Shown: positions 22,807 through 60,128 of the stretch, piece by piece
Position numbering within the stretch: the stretch's first letter is position 1
How the letters are laid out: each line of letters starts with the position of its first letter
Assembly: GCA_017883285.1 (NCBI GenBank)
Contig: JADGNV010000122.1
Span: 26,152 to 90,151 of the forward strand
DNA length: 64,000 bases
Origin: Candidatus Aminicenantota bacterium
Lineage (GTDB): Bacteria; Acidobacteriota; Aminicenantia; Aminicenantales; UBA4085
Direction of reading: 5' to 3'
Made by a program: the position numbers and the translations under genes
The notes under the pieces: generated by a model
Told to the model about the DNA's origin: nothing
Database searches by the model: none
The model's input: the letters and a program-made list of their open reading frames with translations, nothing else

Positions 22807-22893
22807 GGCGCGGCTTTTGCCCTCATCGCTCTCGCGGCTCACCCATCTTCGAAGGGTCCCCGCCGCTTCGAGCGACAAGGGCACCGCCGCGCC
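22807..22893. repeat. Dispersed ~87-nt imperfect hairpin, copy A
   Basis: Paired segments GGCGCGGC/GCCGCGCC, GCCCT/AGGGC, TCGCTC/GAGCGA, GCGGC/GCCGC, ACCC/GGGT. Confidence 0.92.
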
Positions 22894-22931
22894 GGCCCTC
22901 GCTCAATATCGTGCGGCTGCTCTTTTATCCA

Positions 22932-23173
22932 GGCGAGGGGGAAGAGAGCGAGCGGACCGGAGGAGATCTCGCCGCTGCGTTTCGGCTTTTTGGGGAACCC
23001 CGCGCAGCGGGGCGGCGTGAAGACCCGAGCCTGAATCAGCCGCGGGGAGGAACCGATAGAAGGCGAGATCTGAAATACGGAGGGACGATAAGGCGGCGAG
23101 ATACGCGCCGCCCATAAAGCCGAAACCCACAGGGCGTTAAGATCTCCGGGGGAGCGAGCCTCTTCCCCGAGCC
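22932..23173 (+). ncRNA. Candidate structured RNA core A (possible pseudoknot)
   Basis: Outer stem GGC-GA-GGGG-AAGAG/CTCTT-CCCC-GA-GCC; inner AGATCTCGCC/GGCGAGATCT, CCGCTGCG/CGCAGCGG, TTTCGGCTTT/AAAGCCGAAA; strand not proven. Confidence 0.5.
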
Positions 23174-23216
23174 CCCCGCCCGGGAGCCCCCTTCCATTAT
23201 CAATTTTGGGCGGATT

Positions 23217-23247
23217 GAGCCGCGAGAGCGACTGGGGCGGGAGCCGC
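23217..23247. repeat. Inverted half-copy of the dispersed hairpin
   Basis: GAGCCGCGAGAGCGACTGGGGCGGGAGCCGC is the reverse complement of the left arm in copy B. Confidence 0.88.
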
Positions 23248-23263
23248 ACCGCCCGTGACCTCA

Positions 23264-29928: not shown

Positions 29929-29988
29929 ACGCGAAAGGGAGCTGATTAGCGCGGCCGCTCTTTTCCCCAGGCTCGGAGGGGCGGTTCG

Positions 29989-30074
29989 GCGCGGCTCCCG
30001 CCCCAGTCGCTCTCGCGGCTCACCCCCAAACCGTGGGCCCCCGCCGCTTCGAGCGACCGGGGCTCGCGCCGCGC
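29989..30074. repeat. Dispersed ~87-nt imperfect hairpin, copy B
   Basis: GCGCGGC...GCCCC.GTCGCTC...GCGGC / GCCGC..GAGCGAC.GGGGC..GCCGCGC. Confidence 0.92.
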
Positions 30075-30197
30075 TCACGCCAGGAGACTGGGCCGAAGAT
30101 CGGTTTTCGAACCGTGCCCTCCTCGCCCAGCTAAAAGATTAGCCGAAGTCCCTTATGTTATTTGATTAGGGCCGCGCGGCTGTACATTAAATTAATC

Positions 30198-30360
30198 GGG
30201 GGCGCGAGGGCGGTGGGGCGGAGAAAGGCATACCGAGGCGCAGCGGGCATGGACCGCGATCCGTCGAAGGCGGATCGCGAGAGCAAGCCGAGGGAACGAG
30301 CCGATTTTCCTCGCCGGGGAAAATCGGCGTACTTTCGGAGCCCCCCGCCCGGGAGCCCCC
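30198..30360 (+). ncRNA. Candidate structured RNA core B
   Basis: GGGGGC(gcga)GGGCGG(t)GGGGC(gga)GAAAG ... CTTTC(gga)GCCCC CCGCCC(ggga)GCCCCC; internal hairpins 30255-30279 and 30300-30328. Confidence 0.6.
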
Positions 30361-51643: not shown

Positions 51644-51730
51644 GGCGCGGCTCCCGCCCCAATCGCTCTCGCGGCTCACCCATCTTCGAAGGGTCCCCGC
51701 CGCTTCGAGCGACCGGGGCTCGCGCCGCGC
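51644..51730. repeat. Dispersed ~87-nt imperfect hairpin, copy C
   Basis: Same paired blocks as copies A, B and D. Confidence 0.92.
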
Positions 51731-51776: not shown

Positions 51777-51925
51777 GGGCGAGGGGCATGCCGCTCAAAA
51801 ACCGGTCTTCGGACGGAGCGGGCAGGGTTCGCCGCCCGACAGGGCGGCGAGAGCGACGGACGAAGAAGAGCGGAATTTCCTCGCCGGGGAAATTCCGCGC
51901 GTTTTTGAGCGGCTGCCCCGAGCCC
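51777..51925 (+). ncRNA. Candidate structured RNA core C
   Basis: GGGC-GA-GGGGCA-(t)-GCCGCTCAAAAAC ... GTTTTTGAGCGGC-TGCCCC-GA-GCCC; internal hairpins 51829-51850 and 51870-51898. Confidence 0.65.
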
Positions 51926-51932
51926 CCCCCGT

Positions 51933-51961
51933 TTGACTTTGCGGGCGCGATAATCTATCAT
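51933..51961 (+). promoter_or_regulatory. Promoter TTGACT-N17-TATCAT for rpsT
   Basis: Direct match downstream of core C. Confidence 0.6.
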
Positions 51962-60040: not shown

Positions 60041-60128
60041 GGCGCGGCGCGAGCCCCGGTCGCTCGAAGCGGCGGGGACCCGCCCAAAGTGGGTGAGCCG
60101 CAAGAGCGACTGGGACGGAAGCCGCGCC
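60041..60128. repeat. Dispersed hairpin, copy D (inverse orientation)
   Basis: GGCGCGGC...GCCGCGCC with the same internal blocks. Confidence 0.9.

What the first reader, a model, noticed from the sequence alone, without database searches (positions are those of the whole stretch)
30198..30360. Second copy of the same RNA fold (core B): stems changed by compensatory substitutions, loop invariant
Seen directly: outer stem GGGGGC(gcga)GGGCGG(t)GGGGC(gga)GAAAG / CTTTC(gga)GCCCC-CCGCCC(ggga)GCCCCC, with G/A-rich internal loops and a bulged T as in core C. The distal hairpin is GCCGATTTTCC-TCGCCGG-GGAAAATCGGC, compared with GCGGAATTTCC-TCGCCGG-GGAAATTCCGC in core C. The loop is identical and both arms change together. 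Both copies also share AGCGGGCA, then a hairpin (CGCGATCCG/CGGATCGCG here, CGCCGCCC/GGGCGGCG there), then AGAGC. Stem changes with conserved loops and linkers indicate selection on RNA or ssDNA structure.
Basis: seen in the sequence. Interest (0 to 1): 0.85.

Follow-up and report, generated by a model that had tools for sequence, protein, structure and literature searches.

The report
Widespread mobile element with three-way fold
The stretch is one copy of a short, non-coding mobile DNA element whose strand folds into a three-armed shape with nearly fixed loops and freely changing stems; the same element sits in up to about 60 places per genome in many uncultured bacteria, is in no RNA family library, and what moves it is unknown.

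Summary
Core B (30198-30360) and core C (51777-51925) belong to one family, with dozens of copies in the window's genome, in 31 of 60 genomes of its order (Aminicenantes), and in MAGs labelled Omnitrophota, Auribacterota, Patescibacteria, WOR-3, Bipolaricaulota and others. The fold is a closing stem P1, a P2-P3 arm with a conserved internal loop (GAGCGGGCAYGG / GAGCGA), and a P4 hairpin capped by a conserved TCGCYGG loop. Over 79 distinct sequences 88% of pair cells are standard, against 61% shuffled, with 671 two-sided changes against 178. Copies are recent insertions: relatives lack copy C between dtd and rpsT, and two genomes of one genus differ by a 395-bp insertion carrying a copy. Copies lie mostly between genes, often just upstream of promoters, pointing at the downstream gene (46 of 63). 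No Rfam family matches, and no partner was found: RAYT, reverse transcriptase, TnpB and IS110 genes are each undetected in some copy-rich genomes. Best reading: a non-autonomous, MITE-like element recognised through its single-strand fold. Whether RNA or single-stranded DNA folds is unresolved.

The parts
30198..30360 (+). Core B, full element copy (P1 to P1')
   Evidence: own genome holds 9 full-length copies including this one and 5 long partial ones, 96-100% identical; R2 96.5 bits, E 8.6e-26
30198..30227 (+). P1 5' arm: GGGGGC, internal loop GCGA, GGGCGG, bulged T, GGGGC, GGA, GAAAG
   Evidence: sequence, fold
30242..30252 (+). Conserved internal-loop strand AGCGGGCATGG
   Evidence: near-invariant over 67 parsed members
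30255..30279 (+). P3 hairpin CGCGATCCG / CGGATCGCG
   Evidence: 93.7% of P3 cells paired over the family
30280..30284 (+). Conserved internal-loop strand AGAGC (family GAGAGCGA)
30300..30328 (+). P4 hairpin with conserved loop TCGCCGG (30311-30317)
   Evidence: 96.0% of P4 cells paired
30332..30360 (+). P1 3' arm CTTTC, GGA, GCCCC, CCGCCC, GGGA, GCCCCC
51777..51925 (+). Core C, diverged copy of the same family
   Evidence: R2 102.7 bits, E 1.3e-27; absent from the dtd-rpsT spacer of relatives
51933..51961 (+). Promoter-like TTGACT-N17-TATCAT of rpsT, starting 8 nt after the end of core C
   Evidence: sequence; TTGACT part kept in relatives that lack the element
29988..30074 (+). Module X: 87-nt palindrome upstream of core B, a separate repeat family
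30092..30127 (-). Module Y: inverted left half of another core type
51644..51730 (+). Module X upstream of core C
   Evidence: 88.5% identical to X
22807..23250 (.). Mosaic of modules X, Z, core B 3' tail and inverted X end, without a full core
60042..60128 (-). Solitary module X

Best explanation
A non-autonomous mobile element of about 150-165 nt, MITE-like in lifestyle. One strand folds into a three-way junction: closing stem P1, arm P2-P3 with a conserved internal loop, and P4 with a conserved heptaloop. The near-invariant loops are most likely the docking sites of a trans-acting protein that recognises the folded single strand; the stems need only pair, so their sequence drifts. Copies spread within genomes into spacers, commonly just upstream of promoters, and gather with other palindromic modules into mosaics. 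Shown: the fold by covariation, high copy number, insertion polymorphism, position bias. Inferred: recognition by a trans-acting protein, and that the fold serves mobility. Open: RNA or single-stranded DNA, and the partner.
For: Covariation. Near-identical copies with unrelated flanks. Insertion polymorphism: dtd-rpsT spacer without the element in relatives G001, G003, G005, G012, G025 and G009; a 395-bp insertion in G026 absent from G058; one spacer with type I in G026 and type II in G058. Type II copies: mean pairwise difference 3.9% in the core, 18.5% in P1, with paired changes and loss of pairing beyond about 15 bp. Order: 31 of 60 genomes, patchy. Other lineages. Orientation: 46 of 63 toward the downstream gene, tandem 22 to 8, binomial p 0.0003 and 0.016.
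Against: No transposase or other partner co-occurs, and no protein recurs beside the copies. No target-site duplication was identified. The position bias and conserved loops could also mean a host function. Low G-U content (57 G-U to 2187 Watson-Crick cells) is low for a purely RNA-level constraint (general knowledge).
Confidence: 0.6

Rival explanations
1. A host regulatory RNA or cis element, kept because it acts near promoters (insulator, sRNA gene, or transcript-end element).
For: 46 of 63 copies point to the downstream gene; sigma70-like promoter downstream on + in 47 of 175 copies, against 27, 20 and 14 in the three control regions (Fisher p 0.013 against the 27).
Against: Copies polymorphic between relatives; unrelated neighbouring genes; one copy lies in frame inside a glycosyltransferase-like ORF; copies such as C sit upstream of the promoter, so not in the 5' UTR.
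Confidence: 0.2
2. A REP/REPIN-type element moved by a RAYT (Y1, IS200-like) transposase.
For: High copy number, palindromes, strand-specific fold; PF01797 genes occur in 47 of 60 genomes.
Against: Y1 genes are found in 22 of 31 element-bearing and 25 of 29 element-free genomes (Fisher p 0.21). Of 20 stretches around such genes only one carries a copy within about 2 kb. G040 has near-identical copies and no detected Y1 gene, though it is 82% complete. No GTAG or CGTC end tag was seen.
Confidence: 0.1
3. Guide-type RNA of an RNA-guided system (TnpB/IscB omega RNA or IS110 bridge RNA).
For: Structured, multicopy RNA-like element; IS110 genes slightly commoner in element-bearing genomes (13 of 31 against 5 of 29, p 0.05).
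Against: PF07282 found in 1 of 60 genomes; no IS110 gene detected in copy-rich G026, G011, G001, G016; no Rfam hit to HEARO or any other family. IscB itself was not searched.
Confidence: 0.05
4. Retron-like or retrotransposed RNA (msr-msd, group II intron relic).
For: Closing stem P1 resembles retron a1/a2 (from memory).
Against: RVT_1 found in 11 of 60 genomes and undetected in most element-rich ones, including the window's; no Rfam match.
Confidence: 0.03

Closest known systems
Prokaryotic MITEs (review PMC10969869), including ERIC and Rickettsia palindromic elements
   Same: Short, non-coding, mostly intergenic, tens of copies, stable foldback structure, occasional in-frame insertion.
   Different: A branched fold with near-invariant loops conserved over several phyla; no parent IS or transposase found; no direct repeats seen.
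REP/BIME/REPIN with RAYT (PMC3733652, PMC3116915)
   Same: Mosaic palindromic modules, foldback structure, high copy number.
   Different: About 160 nt three-way junction instead of 20-40 bp palindromes; no GTAG/CGTC tag; often upstream of promoters, whereas REPs lie mostly downstream of genes (PMC3733652); no RAYT association.
Integron attC sites (from memory)
   Same: Variable stems with conserved structural features, recognised as a folded single strand.
   Different: Dispersed, no cassette array; no integrase was looked for.
Rfam P35 (RF01677) and CrfA (RF01527)
   Same: Weak local similarity at one copy (E 0.009 and 0.11).
   Different: Below gathering scores and not reproduced in other members; taken as chance.

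Membership tests
MITE | Short non-coding element in multiple dispersed copies, mostly intergenic | tested here: met
MITE | Insertion polymorphism between relatives | tested here: met
MITE | Terminal inverted repeats | tested here: inconclusive
   P1 arms are complementary and act as ends in type II, but many copies extend into further palindromic modules
MITE | Target-site duplication | tested here: inconclusive
   none evident at the two empty sites inspected; flanks too diverged or mosaic
MITE | Derivation from an identifiable IS or transposase | tested here: inconclusive
   no recurrent neighbouring protein; Y1, TnpB and IS110 searches give no partner; DDE families were not searched
REP/REPIN (RAYT) | 20-40 bp palindrome with unpaired GTAG or CGTC tag at one end | tested here: not met
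   element ends and fold differ; no tag seen
REP/REPIN (RAYT) | RAYT genes flanked by the repeat | tested here: not met
   1 of 20 RAYT stretches has a copy within about 2 kb
Known Rfam families | Score above gathering threshold | tested here: not met
   no match in the window; no match at the element in 12 relatives at E <= 5
TnpB omega RNA / IS110 bridge RNA | Cognate nuclease or recombinase in the genome | tested here: not met
   TnpB undetected in 59 of 60 genomes; IS110 undetected in several copy-rich genomes
IscB omega RNA (HEARO) | iscB gene or HEARO covariance match | tested here: inconclusive
   no HEARO match; iscB not searched
Retron msr-msd | Reverse transcriptase gene | tested here: not met
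   no RVT_1 in the window's genome and most element-rich genomes

The most novel reading that the evidence does not exclude
A previously undescribed, cross-phylum class of structured mobile nucleic acid, moved in trans by an unknown protein that reads the GAGCGGGCAYGG/GAGCGA internal loop and the TCGCYGG heptaloop of a folded single strand, with stem complementarity kept up during copying.
Probability: 0.3. Interest if true: 0.85.

Novelty: new variant of a known kind. Interest (0 to 1): 0.62.

Why it matters
A fold conserved over several uncultured phyla, with up to about 60 copies per genome and outside Rfam, points to an unidentified protein or process acting on folded single strands in bacteria that cannot easily be cultured. 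The covariance model gives a direct handle: it can be run on assembled genomes to find the autonomous partner, and the invariant loops name the bait for pull-down. If the element acts beside promoters, it would also bear on gene regulation in these lineages.

Tried and rejected
Rfam gathering and relaxed searches: nothing stable; the P35 and CrfA hits at one copy did not recur. RAYT, reverse transcriptase, TnpB and IS110 as partners: no required association. Recurrent neighbouring proteins in 91 loci: none above background. The 11 viral-contig pattern matches lack the fold by eye and are taken as chance. L185, two inverted copies in 4 kb, was opened as a possible autonomous element: the space between holds glycosyltransferase coding sequence instead. 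Replication-strand bias was attempted on a single-contig Omnitrophota genome; GC skew was irregular and the sequence partly masked, so inconclusive. My first pairing for P2 (invariant GGC with GCC) was wrong and was replaced. Literature searches gave no description of this family in the held library; preprints and most subscription papers are not in it.

Full report
The observation. Folding recovers them in core B (-96.2 kcal/mol, z -5.5) and core C (-100.4, z -8.8). The window is a contig stretch of a 3.09 Mb draft genome.

The copies. A DNA search of that genome with core B gives 51 matching places, among them 14 long copies at 96-100% identity and diverged or truncated ones. A first covariance model (R1) built from seven copies gives 49 matches at E <= 10 there, some of them antisense echoes of the palindromic P4. 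In the order, 31 of 60 genomes match, up to 53 per genome at that setting, and 65 and 56 in G026 and G058 when searched directly. Contig lengths of G040 and G026 agree with records titled Candidatus Aminicenantes, so the lineage is inferred to be Aminicenantes. R1, trained only on the window's genome, recovers 25 of 32 of the loci tried from other lineages at E 1.5e-9 or better, and R2 finds 2 to 35 matches in each of 21 such genomes. MAG labels can include contaminating contigs.

The fold. P1 closes the element and varies freely; the P2-P3 arm holds the conserved internal loop; P4 carries TCGCYGG. On 79 distinct aligned sequences, 88.3% of cells pair against 60.8% shuffled and 37 to 55% for slid partners; 671 cells change on both sides against 178. 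That alignment was fitted to R1, which already contains P1, P3 and P4, so it leans toward those stems. P4 was therefore also scored by position from a pattern, without a structural alignment: 84% against 49% shuffled. P2 in its present register was not in R1; its inner three pairs form in 57, 56 and 49 of 67 copies against 25, 32 and 30 expected. G-U without A-C at the inner P4 pairs (27 to 0) suggests that one strand folds, but over all helices the ratio is 57 to 47, with little wobble overall. RNA and ssDNA therefore stay open.

Mobility. Type II copies of G026 and G058 differ by 3.9% in the core and 18.5% in P1, with matched changes on both arms, and pairing ends at about 15 bp. The dtd-rpsT spacer of six relatives lacks copy C. 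A 395-bp stretch with a type II copy in G026 is missing from G058, and one spacer carries type I in one and type II in the other. Copies come with other repeats: X, Y and Z modules in the window genome, and a 256-bp repeat in G026 and G058.

Position. Of 63 copies with genes called on both sides, 46 point to the downstream gene; in tandem contexts 22 to 8. ORFs were called by a simple length rule. Promoter-like sites are commoner downstream on the + strand (47 of 175) than in the control regions (27, 20, 14).

Partner. RAYT, reverse transcriptase, TnpB and IS110 fail as required partners (contrasts). RAYT genes are not flanked by copies beyond chance. Draft genomes mean that single absences are weak; the pattern over 60 genomes is the evidence.

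Reading. The simplest account is a non-autonomous mobile element recognised by its fold. A host regulatory role is the main rival. The family is absent from Rfam 15 and was not found in the searched literature; the kind, a miniature structured mobile element, is known, while a branched fold kept over several phyla is not typical of it.

Noticed in passing
L273:1116-1371 (G026): A 256-bp palindromic repeat (ends GCCTGAAYTATTCA / TGAATARTTCAGGC) matching 43-44 places in each of G026 and G058; the number scored was capped.
   Followed up: partly
window 29988-30074, 51644-51730, 60042-60128, 22807-22892: Module X, an 87-nt palindrome at several spacers, also without the core.
   Followed up: partly
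L185:304-1593: One element copy lies in frame within a glycosyltransferase-like ORF, as described for Rickettsia palindromic elements; the P1 arms are complementary there too.
   Followed up: partly
L242 and L310: The same spacer carries different element types and modules in two close genomes, suggesting module exchange at one site.
   Followed up: no
L022:1398-1554: Copy with a core-C-like left half and a core-B-like right half whose inner P1 arms still pair with a bulge.
   Followed up: partly
contig ends C3, C14, C74, C199 of G000: Several contigs of the draft end inside element copies, so the copy number is probably an underestimate.
   Followed up: no
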